Source of the DNA: Sipunculus nudus
Lineage: Eukaryota > Annelida > Sipuncula > Golfingiida > Sipunculidae
DNA length: 64,000 bases
Assembly (NCBI GenBank): GCA_026874595.1
Contig: CM049308.1
Location: 49,834,124 to 49,898,123, forward strand
Direction of reading: 5' to 3'
This document shows, in pieces, positions 33,911-47,878 of this stretch. The position numbers were made by a program, and so were the translations under genes. Numbering within the stretch: the stretch's first letter is position 1; every line of letters begins with the position of its first letter. The notes under the pieces were generated by a model. That model had not been told where the DNA came from. It did not search any database and was given only the letters and a program-made list of their open reading frames with translations.

Positions 33911-36900
33911 ATGGATTACGCGCACTATTTATTTGTGTTATGCAGCGTGTGTCTGGTGAGTATAGACGCTCTGATGTTTCATCTGTCACCTCACCAGAAG
34001 AAATGTTTGAAAGAAGAAATTCATAAAGATATCCTGGTAACCGGCGAATTTGAACTCTCAGAGGCACCGGGCCAGAAAACAAATTTACGAGTGAGTAAAC
34101 ATTCCTGCACAAGTATATGTATCATGTATGTCTTATTTTTACCGAGTGAATACAGCTGAAAGAATGGTTTCAACTGGTGAATATTGACCTGTGGCCAACA
34201 CTGCAACAGAACTCTGAAGAATGGGAAGTGTCAAAATAGTAGGGGCTGGACTAAATACCGAAATACACTGGGAAATACCGAAAAACACTGAAATACACAA
34301 AAATACACTGAAATAACAGACTTTAGCACCAGTATATGTGTTCAATACACATATTTATTGTACACCTATACTGGTGGTAATGACAGTTATTTGGGTCTGA
34401 CTAAATACCCCAACGGACCTAAGAATGACCCCAACGGACCTGTTTATTACTCCACTGGATCAATTGGTTATATTAACCTATTATTGAGTGTATATGTAAA
34501 TTGTCTAATCATAAAAAAAAATGAAAAATAACCCCGACTGGACTAGGAATCATAAAAACATATATATATATATATCATTACAATTACTTCCAAAAATCCC
34601 AATTACAATTACAAATTACTTTAATTTTCACAAAGTAATGATTAAATTACAATTACTTTGGCAAAGTAATTAATTACATTCAGTTACTTAAAAAAAAACA
34701 ATATATAGAGGTATGGTTCACTTAAAAGTTTCAGTCATGCTAGAATTAGAAAGGTCAACTAGTTAAATTTTTAAAGGAAAAACTGCAAACAAAATATATC
34801 TAGTCTGGTTCTCATATATATATAAGTGCATGATAGCTACACCAAAGATAATGTATCATTACATAATGTTAAAATTTATGTACTTTTCTCTTAGTACATA
34901 GTAATTTGCTAAAACTAAACTATAAGCACAGGAAGAGAGATGATCACTAAACTTGTCAAATTTAGTTCAATTCCCAGCATTTGTAAATTTAGTTCACTTC
35001 CCAGCATTTGTACTGTGAAAACAGATCCGTGTAGTTTATTATTGAAGATTGCAGAGCCAGTGATCATGCATATCAATAGGTCTACCAATAAGAAAAGTCT
35101 TGCTTCAGTCAATGTAGTAGCTTTGATGCATGTGATGCATAAGAAGACACTGCAGTATCTCTCAAGTATAAGTCTCCTTCTCTTAAGTGTACGAGTCCTC
35201 TCTGACCGTACCCTTTTTCTTTGACCAGGTTTTTTGCTCCCTGAAGGTGTTGCTACATATTGTTTCTAGGTTTCCTATATATCATTATATCATTAATATA
35301 TTTATATGCCTACTATAAATAAATATATATTATATACTTTAGATATAAGTTACATATATATATTTATATATAAGGGGTATATATATATATTTTTTTTCTA
35401 GGTTTCTTATAGATCATAAAGTGGGTTTTATATATTTATAAGGTATATATAAATATCAGGGTTGGGTTTTAGGCTGCCCAAAACCTGTTTTCCGCAGGGC
35501 AGAGCCTAAAACATGCCTTTAACTGCCTAAAATAGGTTATAACCTGCCTAAAACTGCCTTTAACTGCCTAAAACCTTATTTACCCTTAACTATGACTTTT
35601 AGTTTAACTATGTTTTATTGTTAAACATCTAAATGCATTAAAAAAATATGCTCAACAAATTAAAATTGAGGATCACTTTATTCAAACTAAACAAATTAAA
35701 CCATGACACAAAAAAAGCAACAAATGAATTCAACATTACTTCAGGGATTTCCTTATGAACACAGTTCTCTGACTCTCCTACCTCCATTACTGCCAATTTA
35801 TAAAAGAATGCTCTTACTTTAAGCTTATAACCAGATACTTTTATTGTTTTTTTTATCACAAGGGATTAAATTTTGTGATAAATGGAAAAGAAGTTTTCCT
35901 GGAATTAAAATGTTGTTCCATTCATACTGATGAATAGTTCTTTATACTGTGGTTTCACTAACATAACATGTATATTTTGTACGAAGTGTCTAGAGCTCCG
36001 GACCCGTGAATACTGCCGTGCAGCTATTTTTCCGTACTAGTTCCGGTTTACATGCGCAGTGGCGTACTGCGCAGATAACCGAAAACGGGCATCTTGTTTT
36101 GACTGGTACAGCCAAACTGAGCCGTGCTGTGCCAGCGACGGCGTTCTCCCGCTAAAATGGCTGTGAATAAGCTGTTAAATGAGGCTTCAAAAAGCAGCCT
36201 CCATTTCTGCGTATGGCATTGCAAGAACAGCATCCAGCATCGAGAAGGACAAAACGTTTCAAACGCTATGGCTGCCGTCGTGGTTGGTGACCTGTCCGGC
36301 ACTGACTATTTTTACTATATAAGTGACATAAAATAAAACTGCCGGACGAATAGCTCAGTTGTTGCGGGTCCGGCACCGTCTCTTTTACTATTTAAGTGAC
36401 ATAAAATAAAACTGCCGAACGAATAGCTCAGTTGTTGCGGGTCCGGCACCGTCTCTTTTACTATTTAAGTGACATAAAATAAAACTGCCGGACGAATAGC
36501 TCAGTTGTTGCGGGTCCGGCACCGTCTCTTTTACTATTTAAGTGACATAAAATAAAACTGCCGGACGAATAGCTCAGTTGTTGCGGGTCCGGCACCGTCT
36601 CTTTTACTATTTAAGTGACATAAAATAAAACTGCCGGACGAATAGCTCAATTGATGCGGATCCGGCAGTGTCTTTTTTGCTTTATAAGTGACATAAAATA
36701 AAACTGCCGAACCATTAGCTCAATTGTTGCGGGTCCGGCACTCACTGCCGCGCCGTGCGTATATCATATGAAGTACCGGTACTGAGCCAGATTCAAGGAG
36801 TGCCGGACCATTAGCTTTGCGTAGTCTGCGCCCGGCACTTCTGCATTACGGTGCAACTGCGCATGTGCACAGGAAGTGCCGGACGAATAGCCGGCTGCAT

Positions 36901-39900
36901 AATGGGTCCGAGCCCGGACCAATAGCAACAGCCTATTTTGTATGCCTGTAGCTTCAATGGCAAAAAGCATTGGATTGGATTTATAAATTATTCCATATTT
37001 TTTATGCTAGCCATAAACTAAAAGTATGAAAATATCCTTTACATTATCTGATAATGAACAGGAATTTCCACTATTTGTTTATTCCCTTAGCTAGGTCATC
37101 TCTTGTCAAATTTTAAGATTTTGTGCACATACTTACCTTCTATATAATGATGGATATACTCTGTTAATTGTATGATGAGATTGTGAAAATGGAACCCTCA
37201 TTAAACACTATAATTAGTATAAAACTGAAAATGTGAAAATATTTTGCAATGAATATGTTGCAAACCACAGAATATTCATAATTACTCAGGGGCTGTGTTA
37301 AACCTGAAGGCCTGAGGGGCACTGACTGCATCACTCAGTAAAATGTTTGCTCAAGAACAGTCTTCAGGGCAAGGGCTTTGATTGTATCCTCCTAGTCATG
37401 TATGAAAGTTGACATGAACATCTACTAGGACACAGCAGTAGGACTTATGACCATTGGGTCTTATGACCCCATCACCCTGATAAATTGTAATTAACTTGTC
37501 TAATCAAGCATGTCTTCCCTCTGATAGTGATACCCTGTCTTACAAGGGCAAACTGGAGGCTGTATTACATCATTCAAGGTAGCTGGGCACTCATCAGAAA
37601 ACCCAAAAGGTCCTGATAATGTCATTACCTTGGCCAATAAAACTATGTGCCACACAAACATGGTCTCATGTTCAGACACCTATACAGGCTCTTTGAAGAC
37701 TGCATGGTACCAGCCAACAGGAAATCATGCATTACTAATACTTGATAGCTTCCAGAAGCCCAGCAAAGCCTTGTGACTGCATCACCCCAGCCAGTATGGT
37801 AGTTTTACAGATCTTTAAGTAAAAAATGTAAACAAATATAGGTTTTGGGCACTTTTGGTGCCTAAAAGCGGTTTTAACCAGGTTATAACCTATGGTTAAA
37901 ACCTTCATGCCTAAAACTTGCCAACCCTGATAAATATATATACATGTTGTGTATTGAACTTACTGGTGGTAGTGACTGTTATTTAAGGGTATTTCAGTGT
38001 TATTTATGTGTATTTTGGTACTATTTCAGTGTTATTTCGGTCTTTATCGGTGTATTTAGGTATTAAGTCCAGCACACTTGTTGTACAGTATGTTAGTAAT
38101 ACTTGCAGTAATATGTTACAGAATGTCAATATTATTTCACGTTTATGCTTTGTTAGCGACTGCATCCAGAGTACCAATTGGAAATTTACCTTCACATTCA
38201 TGTGTATAATTTGGAGCAATTATAGAATCCTTCCTACAGGCTGGGGACCAATGGAAATTCATACCAAAACTGTCCTAATCAGGCACCCTATTTCATTGTA
38301 TGGTATCTTATGCATTTCTTTGTCCTGTCACTGTCACTGAATACCATTGAATAATCTGAAGAAGACTTGGTACATCACTACCTGGATTTGAACCTGCCAC
38401 CTCATGCTTACTAGTACTACACCTTAACTCACTGAGCTAACTTACTGATGTGGGGTGTGCTGATTAATTTGAACCTGGGTCATTGAAAGGCCACCTGAAG
38501 GTCAATTGCTAAACTAATGATGTAGTAAATGAATATGTATTTATTTTATATTTGGGAGTAGCACCCCCAAACCCCCACTTAGGTTAGGAACCCAGGTGTT
38601 ATTGGAAAACATATATTTCATTTAAATTGGGGGTTGCACCCCCAAACCCCTGCTTAGTCTGAAAACCACAGATAATATCTCAGGAGAGGGAGGAAAAAGC
38701 TGTTAAAAAAACATTTAATGCAACACTTCAACATGTAAATAAGTGTTATGGTAGTCATGGATATACCAGGAAAGGAAGACCATTTTTAAAGGGATATATG
38801 GATACAAATATGACTAGAGAAGAGATGCTAAGCATTTACAGGAGTGAAACATGCTTGTCAAGGCACAAATGAGGTTTGTTTTTGTCCAGTTGGGCCCTAG
38901 GGTAGAGGAACTGGTGTGGGAAGGATTCTATAATTTAATTTAATTTAATTTAACAAGAATTTGATTTATACAACCAGGCAGACTTTGTAAACACAACATA
39001 TAAGGTACCGATAGATTTTAGTCATGTTTTCAGGCAACATGTTTCTCCTGGCATGCCTGCTACCTAAATCATGACATAAATTCACCTGTATGGCTTAGGT
39101 AGTGTCTGTCCACATGACTGTCATGCGGATTAGCTTTCTTATCCACACGACAACCATGTGTTCCCATATATCGTACACTAAATATATTTTAATTTTTCAT
39201 AATATAATTACTTCAAGTATCAGAGGAATGATAAAAGTTGGGAAATTGATACAAAACAAAACTCGTGAACAGAAATAAACATGCCACAAAGAAACTTGCT
39301 ATTATAGCTGGCCAAGGAACATTCATCATGCCCAGGCTTTTCCAGTGTTATGCACTGATTGTGTCTAACTTGTAAGTATTAAGTTTATGTAAATCATCCA
39401 GCATCTACAACTTTTAAGCAGTTCTGTTGTGCTGAGGTGTCTGTTACTAGCCATATGGTTAGCAGGGGTTAGGTTTTATATTATAATATGAGAGGCTGCA
39501 GTGCGGATTGTACTTCTTATCGGCACGACGGTTGTACCAATAGCCTCGGCCATATGGCTTGCATGAGCTTCTTGTGATTTTGGTGCCACATCAAAATGAC
39601 AGTTGACGCTGATCTCTAGAGCCATTGCTTTGGCCAAAAGCTTTATAGTTGAAGTACATTTCAGGTCAACCCACCAGAGCTTCTGTGTGCAATAGTTTTA
39701 TATTTATATTTGCTTTGTCACACAGAGGCCAGGATTAAGGTTTTCAAGAGTCTATAAAATGTGAACCTAAATAAATTGCTGAACTGTGCTTGTGTTACAC
39801 CACATGCAGAGCCCTTTATTTTAGCCAGTATTATTTTTAACTCCAGTATTAAGGCTGCTTAACTGACTGTTCCCAACACCCCCACCATTTTAGCCATTAA

Positions 39901-42900
39901 AATGTCCCCAGAGAGAGGGAGAGATGAGTCATTGCCTGAACACATACATCAATACTTAACCAACCCTCCTACACTACAGAAAGGGATTTGTATTCTTATT
40001 TTCCACCAGCAGAAACTGATGAACAACATATATGATCAGCATTATAGGTGGACCATGATGTCACTAACTGTGACAGATTGTTGCCCAGCTCATTGAAAAT
40101 TAAACAAGTCCACTGCATGAGCAATTATTGCCAGTCATGCAAGTGTGGCACAGGGATGTGCTGCCAATTTGGTCTACTAGGTCTTTGCAGTACCAGACTT
40201 CCAGTCTTGGTGAACCTTTTCCAGCAACAGCATACTGTACCTTTGGCTCTATTTTATTGTCAGGCCTTTTGTTTTGACTTTGCCAAACAGATTTCAAAAG
40301 GCCAAAGAGTAGTGAATGGCTGTATGGCAGATGCACTGTAGCAATGGAATGCATTATGTCACAATGTAGACATTTACCCCAGATTCTTTCTCAATCTCAA
40401 CAGTTCATTGAATGGAAAAGTTTATGTTATAACAAACATGTGAATTTTTTTTCTGAATAAGCAATTATATTGCATTTACACAGTAAAACATAACAGATTC
40501 AAATTTATGGTGCTATTTCTTCCAGTCCCTTCGTTTCATGTGCTAATGGATATATATCTATCTATCGAGCTTCACCTGATGTCTATATGTAATCCAATGA
40601 TAATAATATACTCTAATATCTGCTGCATACAAAACTGACAGTTTTAATAATCCCCTGTCAGCTGTGAGTGTCCAGGCTACACAAATTGTTTACAACTTGA
40701 CCCTCGTCTGAGGTAAAACAACCGTCCAAAGTGAAACTCATTAATATATGGTCCACCTACTCTTAACAACTTCTCCCTTGTTTAGGGTAACAATGAGCAA
40801 CTAAAATAGTTAGATCTCACAACATGGCTACAAAGGGCCGCTGGAGTGACTAAATTTTGACCTCAGTCCCTCCCCTTTTGGAACAAGACTAAAACTATTC
40901 AGTATTTTCCCTGTGCTGTGTGTGGCATGTCAAGGCATAATTATGCCTTGTGACATTTGCTTGAGACAATGATAATTTGCCCTGACAAATGAGCAAAAAA
41001 TCAATTTTGCAGCCTGTTTCTAGAAAATTCTCTGGTCGCTTTGGAGAAGTAAAGAGTTGATGTTTCAAGGTGACCTTAATTTGTACATATTTTTTGCCCT
41101 ATATTACAATATAATCTAAAGACTTAACAGCTACTATAAACTGTATAAAAATTACTGGTTTATCAAAAGCCCATAACAGATACTCAGTGGTATACATAAA
41201 ATATTGATCACTCCCTGTCTAAAGCTTTATTGTTATATACAGGGTTGTCAAGTTTTAGGCAGGGAGGTTTTAAACATAGGTTATGACCTGGTTAAAATTG
41301 CCCTGCCTAAAAACAGGTTTCATCTCTTATTAGGCTAGTTTTGGCTACCATAATAGTTTTTAATACCCATTTGAAAGGATTATATTATTCCTTTAAAAGC
41401 TATTGTTAAGGAGAATAAGGATGTGCTGATAACTCCAGATATATATGACACGGTGGTAAAATGTTCAGTTGATTAAGTTAAACATGACGAAACTAAGATT
41501 GTTCCTGTGATTGATATTCCAGTTCCACTCTTGTTATTCCTACCACTGCCTGTCCACAGGTTTTTATTCATAATTTACACAAGAATTGGGGTAAACCGGC
41601 ATGAGGCACACATGATTTTATTTACATGTTGGTACATTTTGCACATGTATATGCAGGAATTACCATTCCAATATAATGTCATATTAGTACAAGGCTACTG
41701 GCTTAATAGACCTATTTACACAGGATTGAAACAAAAGTGGATGACACAAAAATTAATAGCTTTTAATTTAATACATTTCTGACAGTAGGTGATTATCTCC
41801 AACTGTCCATAGCAGAACTTCTAAATCAGGAAAAACCCAGTGAGAGAATCAAGTTCCTATAGAACCCCTAGATTATAATTAACAGTTATTCAAATAGTTG
41901 ACAGTTATGTAAACCATGTTTATTTCTAAATGCATATTTCAGGTCACAGACTCGAAGAACCATGTGCTGTACAACAAAGATGAAGCAACCAAGGGAAAAT
42001 TTGCTTTCACTACAGAAGAATATGATATGTTTGAGATTTGTTTTGAGACCAAAATGCCAGGAGGTAATATGAATTTTTCATCTCACAGTTGTAACATGTG
42101 TGTGGATATAATCTGTATAATATAGATCCCAGCAAATTGTATAGTAATGACAATGTTTATATGAGGCATCGGGTCATTTTAAATATCTCATGTCATTGTA
42201 AATTGTAAACCTTGTCACTGGCAAAATACAGTGTTGCCTAACAAAATGTCAAATATAAAAGCACCTCAAGTCCTCAACCATGGTTAATAATAATGTTTAT
42301 ATAAGACACAAGTATAAGTGTTATACATGTTGCTTAAATATTTAGTCAATACTACCTGTGCTGCCTCAGCTATATTTTATTGTAAGTGTCTCTTAAGAAC
42401 TTTGCAGCCTAATCTCCTATGCATCCACACGTGGTCTTTGTTTACTTCAGCGGCGATTGACCCGACACCTAGCGGTAAAAACGAACATGAACGCGCACAG
42501 ATATACTCGGACTCTGTCTTTTTTCAAACGCCACAAACTTTTCACTGAGTGAGTGTCACAACATTGTGTCCACTCATGGGTGTGTCCTGCCATCTGAGGG
42601 CGAGAATGGACACTAATAAATCATGTGAACATTGTCATGTGACTTTTTAAATGGCATGTTTCAACATGTCTATGACCTACTAACGCGACGAGAGGAACGC
42701 TCAGAAAATCCATAAAATAGCGGGTAAATATTCCAACTGCAGTAAATTGACCATTATTAAACAAAAGTGCATAAAAAAATGTATAGTTATTGAAAATATC
42801 AGATTTTAAAGTGGTTTAGCAAAGCTAGGGTACACATTTTTGTGAGCACTAGCTGGTCCAGAGGTGCCGTCTGTCATGAGGTCAACCCTGATCAGCTGAT

Positions 42901-45900
42901 GGATTTGGCCAGAAAAACCATGACGTTATTTTAGTATGATTTTATCAACAAAACGGTGAAAAAAGGTCTGTTACTTTTTGAATGATTTAATTAATACTGA
43001 ATGTAAACTGCAAAGCAGCTAAAATCACATGCAGAGCAGGCTTCCTATGCGCGTGTACATGTAAAGGCTATAATGTTACAACAGCTGCGCACAGCTTGGC
43101 AGCCCTAGGGTTGGTTTTTGGGTCTGCGTAGCGTGTCATCTCCATAGTTACGACCCTTGACCTCAGTCAGTGGGTGCATGTTAATGGCAACCAAAGCGGT
43201 GGTTCACGGGCGAAAACACTGGGTCAAATTAATGCTTGTTGAATAATTTATATGCTTAGCACAGAGATGGGAGCTCGGAATATGGATCATGGGTACCCTT
43301 TCCATCATAGTATATAATTGAAAATGCGCGTATTCTTTTAGCAACGATAGGGTACACAGTCAAACATCGGGTATGAAGTGGTGCCTGTCACATGCTCGCT
43401 CGCTCTGTTTCGGAGCACTGACATGTTATCCAGTCTTGTTTGTCTATTAAAACTTGCTATTTATTCAGGATTGGTTTATACTTGAATTATTTAAAAGAAT
43501 AAAGCTTTAACACTGGTCGTCTGTCCAACAAAAACAATATGCTGAAATTTTCTAACGGTTGTAGTACTCGCAGTTATCAATAGGTGGCACGTGTACTTTA
43601 AACACCAAATCTCATTTAAATATGCTAATGAGCACGGGAGTTCAAGCTGTTTGTATATGTAATAACTGGTTTGATCTGATAAATAATAGTTTTTATCGCC
43701 AGAAAGTACTGTTGGACTCTTCAAGATATTTTTTCACAATATTTACATTTTCTCTTTAGGTGGCCAAGGTGCAGATAGAGAAGTATTCATCAATGTGAAG
43801 CATGGAGTGGAGGCAAAGAACTATGAGGATGTAAGCCTGCTTTTCTTGGTATCTGATAACAATAACATTAATGTTTTAAAATTAAATATCAAAATATCCA
43901 AATTTAAACATTTGGAACCATCTAATGTCTTGTGATAATCGCATTATCTGACACAAATCATGTTTCTGATCAAAACTGATTTTTTCTTGTAAAAGTGACA
44001 CTACTAAAAGCATCTCATTTCATTCATTTTGTGAGTTTGTTAAGCTAAGCTGACTAGGCCATATATTGTATAGAAGTCTTCCTTCTATATGAAATGTGTA
44101 ATTACCTATTAAATTGTACACAGTGATTTGAGAGAATTGTCTCCTAGTTAGACCAAATATTTCCTTCTGTGTGCATATGTTACCCATATCAAACCATATA
44201 CCGAAAATTCTAATGAGGATGATTTATGAGTAAGTAAGAAATACTCTATCATTCAACTCATAGTATTAGTTGTCAGCTATCACTGTGTCATGATGAAGCA
44301 GTCACCCTGCATTAAGTATCCATCCATTAGACAGTCCTGTTTGTGACTTTACTCAACCCCTCAGTGTTAGTGACCTCCATCATCTGTATTTGATAATTAA
44401 ACAAAATGTCACTTATCATTGAAATATGAGGCATCGGTTGCCTGAATATCATCTCCAAAGATCTCTATTCTGTGTAAACCACACCAATGTACTTCCTCTC
44501 AAAATTGAACCAATGTAGTCCATTTTTTCAAACATCATGTAAGTAGTGCCTGAATTGGAAAATAAAAGGAGCATTCATGATGGATTTTTCATTAAAAATA
44601 AACCAGAACTGGAAGAAAATGCTTTTTGTCTGCCCTCCCAAATAAATGCACCCCTAAGTACTGAGCTATTGAGAGACTAATGCCTAGATTTGTGAGCCAT
44701 TATGAGTCCGTTATCTCCGTTATAACACTCTACTGGGCTTAACACTGAAAAACTACCCACCCACCCCAATTCACATTCGCATGTAAGTGAGGCAAGGCCA
44801 ATTCTGTTAGCCTAAAGAGCTCAGCTTGGGCTGGGTGGACCGTGAATTATATCATGGCTCCTCGGCTAATACTCTAACTCTGTGCTCTGTAGAGTCCAGT
44901 GCGCTGCCTAGACTACAGAAGCCATCATTTTAATTATGATACTTTAAAAAAATTTTAAAAGTATTAGATATCAGCATGTTACATACGATTGAATGTTTGG
45001 TCTTAACAGTTAATATCCAAATTTCAAAGAAATATAAATATTATAGCCCGGCCACACAGGAATCGCAGCCCATTAAAGTTAGTCTGTGTAATGCTAAGAC
45101 ATTCTAGAAAACAAAAAAAACTCAAATGTGAAAGATGCCTTAAAGTGTCCTCTTTACATTGCACATTTAAATTACACATTTACACATTTTCGTAATTTGG
45201 GAGGGGGACACCCCAGTGAACCTGTAATTAACTTTACAAATGAAAATGGCTGAAGATTTTTTTCATATATCTTATATAAAACAAAAACAAAAAAATATAC
45301 AATTTTTTTTATAGTCTGAAAATAGATAACATATGTAGTAATATTTTATATATAGGTAATTCATAATATTGCATATCATATAACCACTAACCCAGTATAT
45401 ATGTGCCCCCTGTTCAAGTATTTCTGGACCTACCACTATATTGGTATTTGGATTGTACAAGGGGAATCTATCAATTGAAAAAAGAGATTGTGATTGAAAT
45501 CAATTTTCTGACGTTTCATGCTTACAAAAACACCCATTTCCAAGGGATCTCCTGTTTTGTCATACATGTGCTTTGGGTAGATCGCCCGAAAGGTGGAATT
45601 GAACCACTCTGACGCTAATCAGCTACAGGTTTGAAGCCTGCACCCCGGACCACCGAGGGTCATTCGGGCAGTAGGAAAGGGGAGTGAAGGTTGTTTTATA
45701 GATGCAGTTTACCTTTTATATATTCTAGGTGTTGTAATTTAACAGACTGTCAAGATAAACTTGTTCATTTCTTTATAAAGCCAGTTGGTAGATGTCCTAT
45801 CACATGCAGAACAACAAAATACAAATTTTCATATATATACTTTGCAAAATATTATATTTTATACAAGTTTCCTTGAATTTATTACTTTAATATCTAATGC

Positions 45901-47384
45901 CAACAATTGTTGTAGTGACCTCACAGACCTGACATGGAAAGTCCCTTCAAGTACTCTCATTGATAAAGGCAACTGAGATAAGAGCAGTATCTTGCATGGT
46001 TTACTATAAATGCTAATATAAAATTACTAGCAAAACCATGTATCTGTAAAGGGGGCTTTTCAGTTCTGTCATTCTTTGGTCAAATGAGTTCTGCCATTCT
46101 TTGGTCAAACGAGTTCTATCTGGGCAAATGGTCAATTTAAGGCATTGTTTCAATTTCTTAGCCAAAAGACTGAATTTTGTCCCATCATTGTTTATCAGAA
46201 ACACATAACAGTTACACCATAATATTCTACAACCTGTAATTCTAAATAAATAGCAGTCTCTTATTATGCCTACTTAATAACTAACCAATGATCTGTTCTA
46301 CTGAACTTAAACTGAACTCTACTGAATTTAAACCAATAAATTCAAACCTTTAGAATAGATTTGTCAGGTTTGCCAAGTGACACTACCCTTGTGAATTACA
46401 CACCTGTTACTGCCTGGTATAGTAGTTGTAAACACAGACCAGATGTTGTGATATTTGTGCATGTCATGGTCAAAGCAAAAGTGCTTAACATACGTGGCAT
46501 AGGGGTGGCAAAATCAATACAATTATTAAGATGACCTGGACATGATATATGGAAAAATTTCCTCACTTAGTAACTCTAATTCTGGCCTCTGTTCCTGCAT
46601 GATATAGATCTTCACACAAAAAGCAGTATGCCTCTGTGTATTTACAGACTCTTTAAGTCATCAAAACCTTTGGTTTCAGTGAATTTTCAAATATTTTTTT
46701 TTTTTTTTTCAGATTGCCAAGGCAGAGAAGTTGAAGCCTCTAGAAGTAGAGCTTAAGAAACTGGAGGATCTCTCTGAATCTATTGTGAATGACTTTGCCT
46801 ACATGCGTTCTCGTGAAGAAGAAATGAGAGATACCAATGGTATGCCTGTTAAAAATTGTTCTTTGAATTAATAGTGATTGCATGTGGGATTTCAAATAAA
46901 CTAAATTTTGGTTTAATCATTTTCTTGTCCATGTTGTGGAAGGGATAAAGGTAATGTATGGTGAATACTGTATATGCCAAGAATTGCTGGTCTGTTAAAA
47001 ACCAGTTTTATATGAGGACCCATATCTTATTATATGATCACAAAATTTCACCATAAAGCTTGATATATTTTCTCTTTCCGGTCATGCTATCTCTCAGAGG
47101 TCAGCTCTGTAGAGCACCCCTTTTACACATTTTAAATGGAGCTACTCCAAGCTCATGATATGATACAGATATGTGTATTGAAACTGTTCTGTGGTTGTCA
47201 CCAGCTGCTTCTTACAGTAATTTTCCCATGTCATTATCTACATATAATGTACCAGGTGTGCTCTGTTATACCAACTATAAGTAAGATTCTGTGTACGTTA
47301 TTTCACTTTTTTACATGTGGGTTGCAATTCATTACTGACATCTCTTCACTACATAAGAATTTTTCTTGCCTTCAGATATGACAA

Positions 47385-47449
<65 letters not shown>

Positions 47450-47878
47450 CCTTATGGTGAAATGGATAAATAGGGACATTTGGGCAATAAATATTTGTTA
47501 ACATACAAACCAGCCATAAGAATACAGTGTATACAATATAATTCTTGCTTGTGTTGGGAATATTTAATATCCATATACATTTTATTCACAGGATGGTTGG
47601 GTATCAAAAAGATAAATAACAGTTGAGAGGCATTCAGGATAGCTGGTCAGCATTATATATGTAATGCTTAAGTATTTTGGTATTATTTGCTTTTTATCAG
47701 CTGTACTCTATTTGTAAACTGGGCAAAGCAACATAAATTGTTGTCTTGTATTTCAGAATCCACCCACTCACGAGTGCTGTATTTCAGTATTTTTTCCATG
47801 CTGTGCCTGCTGGGTCTGGCCACATGGCAGGTCCTGTATCTGCGACGATTCTTCAAGGCAAAGAAACTCATCGAGTGA
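33911..47878 (+). CDS. TMED10: Transmembrane emp24 domain protein 10 (p24 delta), 5 exons
   Basis: TMED10 is a type I membrane protein of the early secretory pathway, a p24 cargo receptor cycling between ER and Golgi in COPI and COPII vesicles. Exons 33911-34090, 41943-42063, 43760-43830, 46713-46839 and 47757-47878 join to 621 nt, 206 aa (human 219). The layout is: signal peptide about 1-20; GOLD domain with Cys32 and Cys93, the expected disulfide pair; a coiled-coil stretch ([19 protein letters not shown]) encoded by exon 4; a transmembrane helix about 174-195; and a cytosolic tail with FF at 198-199 and KKLIE at the end, for COP coat binding. The block VLYFSIFSM and the tail closely match the human protein. 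Intron 1 is 7.85 kb and holds nested transposons; intron 3 carries an antisense selenocysteine tRNA gene. It is convergent with MED6. Confidence 0.97.
35995..36910. mobile_element. GC-rich inverted-repeat segment carrying the 73-bp array
   Basis: The left edge (GCTCCGGACCCGTG..GCAGCTATTTTTCCG..ACATGCGCAG) is an imperfect inverted copy, over about 65 bp, of the right edge (CTGCGCATGTGCAC..GGACGAATAGCCGGC..GGGTCCGAGCCCGGAC). GC content is far above the surrounding hAT sequence. It may be a separate element nested in the hAT element. No target duplication was seen. Confidence 0.5.
36285..36745 (+). repeat. 73-bp tandem array of tRNA-like hairpin units
   Basis: Units start with CTGCCGG or a variant at 36339, 36412, 36485, 36558, 36631 and 36704, exactly 73 bp apart, plus a partial unit on the left. 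Each unit has GCCGGAC, then TAGCTCAGTTGT (11 of 12 matches to the tRNA box A consensus), then GTCCGGC pairing with the first motif over 7 bp, then ACC and a TTTT run. Units 1, 3 and 4 are identical. Units 2, 5 and 6 carry substitutions that break rather than compensate a pair. Solitary relatives follow at about 36800 and 36870. Confidence 0.9.
38373..38450 (-). mobile_element. tRNA-derived SINE head or tRNA pseudogene
   Basis: On the minus strand a 78-nt block starts CATCAGTAAG and ends TAGTGATG (5 bp can pair). It contains box A TTAGCTCAGTGAGTTAAGG and box B GGTTCAAATCC. The T and anticodon stems are poorly paired, so a working tRNA is unlikely. About 150 nt of further SINE-like body may continue to about 38220. 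Confidence 0.55.
38530..41942 (+). other. Rest of TMED10 intron 1
   Basis: No exon or intact element was recognised. There is a 75-bp direct repeat of the motif GCACCCCCAAACCCC (38561, 38636) and a (TTTAA)n run at about 38934-38953. A hAT-type end CAGGGTTGTCAAGTTTTAGG at 41240 is related to the element at 35457-37929. A short motif pair GCGGATT..CTTCTTATC..CACGAC occurs near 39124 and 39503. Confidence 0.5.
42420..43440 (+). other. CpG-enriched block in TMED10 intron 2
   Basis: This part of intron 2 has more CpG and higher GC than the neighbouring AT-rich intron (for example CAGCGGCGATTGACCCGACA near 42450). No frame resembling a known protein, no clear promoter element and no terminal repeats were found. 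It could be an older insertion of different composition or an internal regulatory region. Confidence 0.35.
45583..45669 (-). tRNA. TRNASEC: Selenocysteine tRNA (tRNA-Sec, anticodon TCA)
   Basis: This 87-nt gene on the minus strand matches the vertebrate tRNA[Ser]Sec almost base for base. The 5' end is GCCCGAATG and the 3' end TTCGGGCG. The anticodon loop CTTCAAA has TCA at 45634-45632. The long variable arm follows, and the T-arm is GGTTCAATTCC. The length equals the human gene. The acceptor helix pairs GCCCGAA with TTCGGGC with no mismatch. In the variable arm CTGA pairs with TCAG where human has CTGT/ACAG, a compensated change that argues for a functional gene rather than a decayed copy. 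It decodes UGA as selenocysteine after serylation and conversion by SEPSECS. It lies antisense within TMED10 intron 3. The nearest T5 run downstream (complement of 45526-45530) is about 53 nt away. Confidence 0.96.
45694..45700 (-). promoter_or_regulatory. TATA box of the tRNA-Sec gene
   Basis: TATAAAA on the minus strand lies at -25 to -31 relative to the first tRNA nucleotide. In animals tRNA-Sec is transcribed from a type 3 Pol III promoter with a TATA box near -30 and a PSE near -66 to -47. The corresponding PSE window is 45716-45735. I do not know this species' PSE consensus and cannot confirm it. Confidence 0.75.
47388..47447. repeat. (AT)n microsatellite in TMED10 intron 4
   Basis: About 60 nt of pure AT, 309 nt upstream of the last TMED10 exon. 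Confidence 0.95.

What the first reader, a model, noticed from the sequence alone, without database searches (positions are those of the whole stretch)
45583..45735. Intact selenocysteine tRNA gene hidden antisense in an intron of TMED10
All 87 positions align with the vertebrate gene without gaps. The acceptor stem is perfect, one variable-arm pair is compensated, and TATAAAA sits at -31 to -25. tRNA-Sec is usually single copy, so this may be the organism's only source of Sec insertion. Placement inside a secretory-pathway gene, transcribed against it, raises the question of Pol II/Pol III interference.
Basis: partly seen in the sequence, partly recalled or inferred. Interest (0 to 1): 0.8.

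Follow-up and report, generated by a model that had tools for sequence, protein, structure and literature searches.

The report
Second, promoter-bearing selenocysteine tRNA gene
An intact selenocysteine tRNA gene sits backwards inside an intron of an animal secretory-pathway gene, but the same genome holds a second, near-identical and slightly better-equipped copy elsewhere, so it is most likely a duplicate of a well-known gene and not the animal's only one.

Summary
The tRNA-Sec gene is real: window 45583-45669 (-), anticodon TCA, G73, RF01852 79.2 bits, antisense in an intron (about 43831-46713) of a TMED10-like gene. It is not the only copy: a DNA search of the genome finds one other, on C7, differing in one of 87 bases. 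The two share nothing outside the gene, as a retrocopy would. Yet the window copy has a PSE and TATA box placed as in this genome's U6, U6atac, RNase P and RNase MRP genes; no other of 127,740 start sites in the window, and 0 of 2,999,870 simulated ones, score as high. So it is most likely a genuine second gene, not a dead retrocopy like human TRNAU2. It looks weaker than C7: C for U at position 9, lower promoter score, and no T-run until 53 nt downstream (C7: 4). In-frame TGA at two GPx active sites indicates Sec use. Multiple tRNA-Sec copies are known elsewhere. Interference with TMED10 has a precedent but is untested. New member of a known kind; low interest.

The parts
45583..45669 (-). 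tRNA-Sec gene (87 nt, anticodon TCA, G73)
45694..45700 (-). TATA box TATAAAA at -31 to -25
45714..45733 (-). proximal sequence element AACACCTAGAATATATAAAA at -64 to -45, ACC core 30 bp upstream of the TATA box
   Evidence: matches a matrix from 12 type-3 promoters of the same genome
45526..45530 (-). first T-run (TTTTT) downstream, beginning 53 nt after G73; presumed Pol III terminator
33968..47875 (+). span of the coding exons found of the TMED10-like host gene (5 exons)
43831..46713 (+). host intron (GT-AG) that holds the tRNA gene antisense
   Evidence: splice sites read by eye

Best explanation
This is one of two genuine tRNA-Sec genes of this animal. RNA polymerase III, recruited by SNAPc on the PSE and TBP/BRF2 on the TATA box, would start at or next to G1, read through the gene and stop at the first T-run 53 nt downstream. 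The 3' trailer would then be removed by RNase Z and CCA added, giving a tRNA-Sec that differs from the C7 product only at position 9 (C for U, the AD-linker). The C7 gene, better on each of the features compared (Rfam score, promoter score, terminator, U9), is probably the main source and the window gene a minor or redundant one. Shown: sequence, fold, promoter elements and their fit to this genome's own type-3 promoters, the second copy, TGA at GPx active sites. Inferred from general knowledge: factor binding, transcription, processing, relative output.
For: Rfam and ARAGORN match; 29 of 30 pairs standard, two compensated against recalled human. PSE+TATA score 19.94 bits with a 12-promoter matrix, higher than 8 of the 12 references score when left out of the matrix; of 127,740 pretend starts on both strands of the window only its own three positions (45668-45670) reach it, next best 16.5; 0 of 2,999,870 Markov positions reach it; 6 other tRNA loci score -16 to +3 (four of these are copies in one array, two of them with identical upstream 120 bases, and one is on a contig that looks bacterial, so about three independent controls). 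ACC-TATA spacing 30, as in both U6atac genes (L041 has overlapping TATA words, so its spacing is ambiguous). The 87-mer DNA search finds only 2 places, so no litter of close dead copies. Two GPx loci with TGA at the active site.
Against: No T4 run until 53 nt after G73, whereas 11 of 12 reference loci have one within -6 to +7 of the model's end, as printed (8, 3), and C7 at the 4th base; the exception, L016, is a truncated U6 match with none until +309. C at position 9 where human (recalled) and C7 have U; A48 stacks on U9 in mouse tRNA-Sec (PMC3101227, passages). Spacing 30 against 31 in 9 of 12 references. Homology of the two copies stops at the gene ends, the pattern of the human retrocopy. 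No expression data and no relatives to test conservation.
Confidence: 0.78

Rival explanations
1. A recent RNA-mediated or tRNA-only copy of the C7 gene that landed in the TMED10 intron and is a silent pseudogene, as human TRNAU2 is in the PARVB intron.
For: Homology is limited to the gene; no near terminator and one substitution; the human precedent is intronic too (PMC5330540, section 11).
Against: PSE and TATA at the right places, which a retrocopy would not bring and which chance does not give; no CCA or poly-A at the 3' end by eye, and the longest word shared by the 30 bases on either side is 6 letters and not next to the gene; G73 and all human-like pairs kept, unlike TRNAU2.
Confidence: 0.13
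2. A once working old duplicate, now redundant and beginning to decay: near terminator lost, position 9 changed, promoter weaker than that of C7. This overlaps with the best explanation, since a decaying gene may still be transcribed; the odds given are not exclusive.
For: The differences compared between the copies all go against the window copy. Other type-3 genes of this genome also come in pairs (MRP 78% alike, U6atac 113 of 118).
Against: 86 of 87 bases are kept while 1.5 kb of flank on either side show no match, so selection or conversion acted until lately, if the duplication is old; the promoter outscores 8 of 12 left-out references.
Confidence: 0.3
3. The nested gene acts as a regulator of its host: antisense Pol III transcription slows Pol II in TMED10 and ties secretory capacity to Sec supply.
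For: Orientation and placement match the mammalian Polr3e/MIR case, where an antisense intronic Pol III unit lowers host protein about 1.5-fold (PMC5358760, abstract and discussion).
Against: Nothing here tests it; no relatives were at hand to see whether the arrangement is conserved.
Confidence: 0.05

Closest known systems
Animal tRNA-Sec genes (human TRNAU1/TRU-TCA1-1; RF01852)
   Same: Same length, fold, anticodon, G73, U-U in the acceptor stem (human letters recalled), PSE plus TATA promoter
   Different: 7 of 87 bases differ from the recalled human gene; terminator begins 53 nt away; one of two copies; no DSE found
Human TRNAU2 (TRU-TCA2-1) retropseudogene in the PARVB intron (PMC5330540, section 11)
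   Same: Second copy, intronic, homology limited to the mature tRNA
   Different: TRNAU2 has C73, broken acceptor pairs and no Pol III signal; the window copy keeps G73, its pairs and a PSE/TATA promoter
Genomes with two or more tRNA-Sec genes (zebrafish; Daphnia pulex, Lingula, Branchiostoma; PMC5330540 text and Table 3)
   Same: More than one intact copy in one genome
   Different: Table 3 lists copies with compensated pairs and zebrafish has identical ones; here the copies differ at one unpaired base, like the paper's 69 predictions in 46 genomes with no mutation or none that affects pairing
MIR nested antisense in Polr3e intron 1 (PMC5358760)
   Same: Pol III unit antisense in an intron of a Pol II gene
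   Different: SINE with internal promoter; the effect on the host was measured there, not here

Membership tests
Eukaryotic tRNA-Sec gene | covariance-model match to RF01852 over full length | tested here: met
   79.2 bits, gathering score 47, model 1-91 of 91
Eukaryotic tRNA-Sec gene | TCA anticodon and G73 | tested here: met
   G73 is called essential in PMC5330540
Eukaryotic tRNA-Sec gene | 9+4 bp acceptor/T helix, 6-bp D stem with 4-nt loop, long variable arm | tested here: met
   29 of 30 pairs standard; pair 8-79 is U-U as in recalled human
Eukaryotic tRNA-Sec gene | external PSE+TATA (type-3) promoter | tested here: met
Eukaryotic tRNA-Sec gene | distal sequence element | tested here: inconclusive
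   octamer and ZNF143-like words: one ACTACAA at -247 in the window, none in C7, nothing shared among the 10 type-3 genes looked at
Eukaryotic tRNA-Sec gene | oligo-T terminator next to the 3' end | tested here: not met
   first T4+ run begins 53 nt after G73; usual in these genes but not a defining feature of the RNA
Eukaryotic tRNA-Sec gene | expression, charging with Ser and conversion to Sec | not testable with these tools
   no RNA data held
tRNA-Sec retropseudogene (TRNAU2 type) | homology limited to the mature tRNA | tested here: met
tRNA-Sec retropseudogene (TRNAU2 type) | broken acceptor pairs and lost G73 | tested here: not met
tRNA-Sec retropseudogene (TRNAU2 type) | no upstream Pol III promoter | tested here: not met

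The most novel reading that the evidence does not exclude
The C9, long-trailer copy is a specialised tRNA-Sec gene whose output is tied to its host: antisense Pol III traffic and host Pol II elongation regulate each other, so Sec supply and p24/TMED10 secretory capacity are linked in this lineage.
Probability: 0.04. Interest if true: 0.6.

Novelty: new member of a known kind. Interest (0 to 1): 0.22.

Why it matters
It adds a case to the animals with more than one intact tRNA-Sec gene. Because the copies differ at one base inside the mature tRNA, their relative use can be read straight from tRNA sequencing. It also warns against calling an intronic tRNA-Sec copy either unique or dead from its body alone: the upstream PSE and TATA tell more.

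Tried and rejected
Sole source of Sec: rejected, second copy on C7. Haplotype duplicate or assembly artefact: rejected, since the flanks fetched (1.5 kb a side) do not match and the copies lie on different large contigs. Other RF01852 hits as further copies: rejected; one search lists 52 matches, 3 over the cut-off, namely the two genes and L003 (47.6 bits), which by eye has a TGA anticodon and reads as a serine tRNA; the 87-mer search gave 2 places. DSE search by short words found nothing shared. Whole-genome duplication as the cause of the paired type-3 genes: considered, not tested. Phylum of the animal: not settled; the 11 COX1 matches are nine of near-equal score on eight contigs, one on C123 that reads as a bacterial oxidase by eye, and a fragment on C5; no mitochondrion was recognised.

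Rows left out of the promoter matrix: of 31 U6 matches 6 were used, those with a visible ACC/TATA pair (L009, L010, L011, L013, L014, L016). The rest are a dispersed U6-containing repeat (L012, L017-L035, L037), others short or odd (L015, L036, L038) and one without locus. RNase P, U6atac and MRP: all 2 of 2 each were used; L046 has TCC in place of ACC. The U6 choice was made by eye and leans towards the motif; the six other promoters were not chosen. L016 is a truncated U6 match without a near terminator, so perhaps not a gene.

Full report
Observation. The - strand of the window reads an 87-nt tRNA-Sec at 45669 down to 45583. ARAGORN calls it with anticodon TCA and Rfam RF01852 matches it end to end at 79.2 bits, the only family over its gathering score in the window. 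So the stem is 'perfect' only in the sense of being like the human one.

Host. tblastn with a recalled human TMED10 finds five exons on the + strand. The four given to Pfam all match EMP24_GP25L, PF01105. The tRNA lies in the intron between GAGGAT|GTAAGC (donor at 43831) and the acceptor ending CAG at 46713 (read by eye), antisense to the host. Whether TMED10 has paralogues here was asked but not answered.

Not the only copy. RF01852 over the 1.43-Gb assembly lists 52 matches; 53 of 61,505 first-look candidates were scored. Two stand far above the rest, C7:54033618-54033703 (80.6 bits) and the window copy (79.2 bits); the third scores 47.6. A DNA search with the 87-mer finds these two places and no other at E up to 1. 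They differ at gene position 11 only, T in C7 and C in the window. By alignment with the human gene this is tRNA position 9 of the AD-linker; in mouse tRNA-Sec A48 stacks on U9 (PMC3101227, passages seen). Outside the gene the 1.5 kb fetched on either side show no match.

Promoter. The 12 promoters used have a TATA box 31 bp (9 of 12) or 30 bp (3 of 12, both U6atac genes among them) downstream of an ACC-type PSE core, TCC in L046; where TATA words overlap the first was taken. C7 tRNA-Sec has spacing 31, the window copy 30. A matrix from the 12 scores the window copy 19.94 bits and C7 27.4 bits; left-out references score 7.6 to 25.6, and the window copy is above 8 of 12. Over both strands of the window, 127,740 pretend start sites, only positions 45668-45670, the gene's own start give or take one base, reach this score; the next best is 16.5. 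In 2,999,870 simulated positions with the window's dinucleotide make-up none does. Six other tRNA loci score between -16 and +3, though four lie in one array and one is on a contig that looks bacterial. A first version with 10 references gave the same picture. Limits: the U6 loci were picked by eye, and no DSE was found.

Terminator. The first run of four or more T begins 53 nt after G73 in the window copy and at the 4th base in C7. In 11 of 12 reference loci it lies within -6 to +7 of the model's end as printed (8, 3); L016, a truncated U6 match, has none until +309. This is the main mark against full activity. Read-through of typically 50-200 nt beyond the terminator of yeast tRNA genes is described in a review, with extended transcripts processed or degraded (PMC5356446, passages).

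Sec use. The Pfam GPx scan gave 9 matches, 4 fetched. L051 has TGA in NVASK*GFTDKNYKQL and L052 in NVATY*G at what looks like an exon end, the usual Sec site as I recall it. Each match also holds one further TGA outside the active site, apparently in intron sequence. No SECIS search was made.

What it is. A retrocopy would not bring a promoter, and chance does not place a PSE and a TATA box so well; unmatched flanks with 86 of 87 bases kept speak for selection or gene conversion on the body. I therefore take it as a genuine second gene, probably weaker than C7, with decay or redundancy as the main rival, which overlaps with it. Other type-3 genes also come in pairs: MRP 78% alike with no shared flank, U6atac 113 of 118 with repeat-like matches downstream, RNase P 94% with some shared downstream sequence on one contig, U6 as neighbours 1.3 kb apart with 85% alike surroundings. 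Duplication of such genes is thus common in this genome.

Known context. Secmarker's authors report that tRNA-Sec is generally assumed single copy, that zebrafish has two identical ones, and that 69 extra predictions in 46 genomes carry no mutation or none that affects pairing; human TRNAU2 in the PARVB intron is a silent retrocopy (PMC5330540, section 11 read in full; passages). Human TRNAU1 uses TATA, PSE and DSE (PMC6627462, passages). An antisense intronic Pol III unit lowers Polr3e expression modestly (PMC5358760, abstract and discussion). The literature was searched. One search asked for TMED10 with tRNA-Sec terms: of 154 papers holding two of its terms the 10 listed have no mention of TMED10, so this arrangement was not met in print, within that open-access library and that listing.

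Noticed in passing
window 36294-36741: Six copies of a 73-bp unit in another TMED10 intron, each with a GAATAGCTCAGTTGTTGCGGGTCCGGCA-like stretch that resembles a tRNA 5' part/box A; perhaps a tandemly amplified tRNA-derived SINE head (by eye).
   Followed up: partly
L012, L017-L035, L037: A dispersed repeat family carries a U6-like sequence behind a constant upstream block (ACCAGGAGAAACGACGACCAGTGAATTC...) with no TATA box seen by eye.
   Followed up: no
G000 C60, C61, C62, C66, C72, C74, C75, C89, C123: Eight contigs hold COX1 matches of near-equal score (418.8-420.4 bits; the one on C60 is at best 59% identical to any listed GTDB genome, an Oligoflexia MAG), and C123 holds a cbb3-like oxidase by eye: probably co-assembled symbionts or contaminants, perhaps several strains.
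   Followed up: partly
G000:C97 (L004): A 61-kb contig with closely packed bacterial-looking tRNA genes, AT-rich (by eye).
   Followed up: no
G000:C7 about 54030100-54033300, upstream of L001's gene: About 3 kb whose translations show a tandem repeat open in several frames, ending some 300-350 bases upstream of the C7 tRNA-Sec gene (by eye).
   Followed up: no
L039-L042, L045, L046: RNase P, U6atac and RNase MRP each found as two copies in this genome, on different contigs for U6atac and MRP; may point to an old genome duplication.
   Followed up: partly
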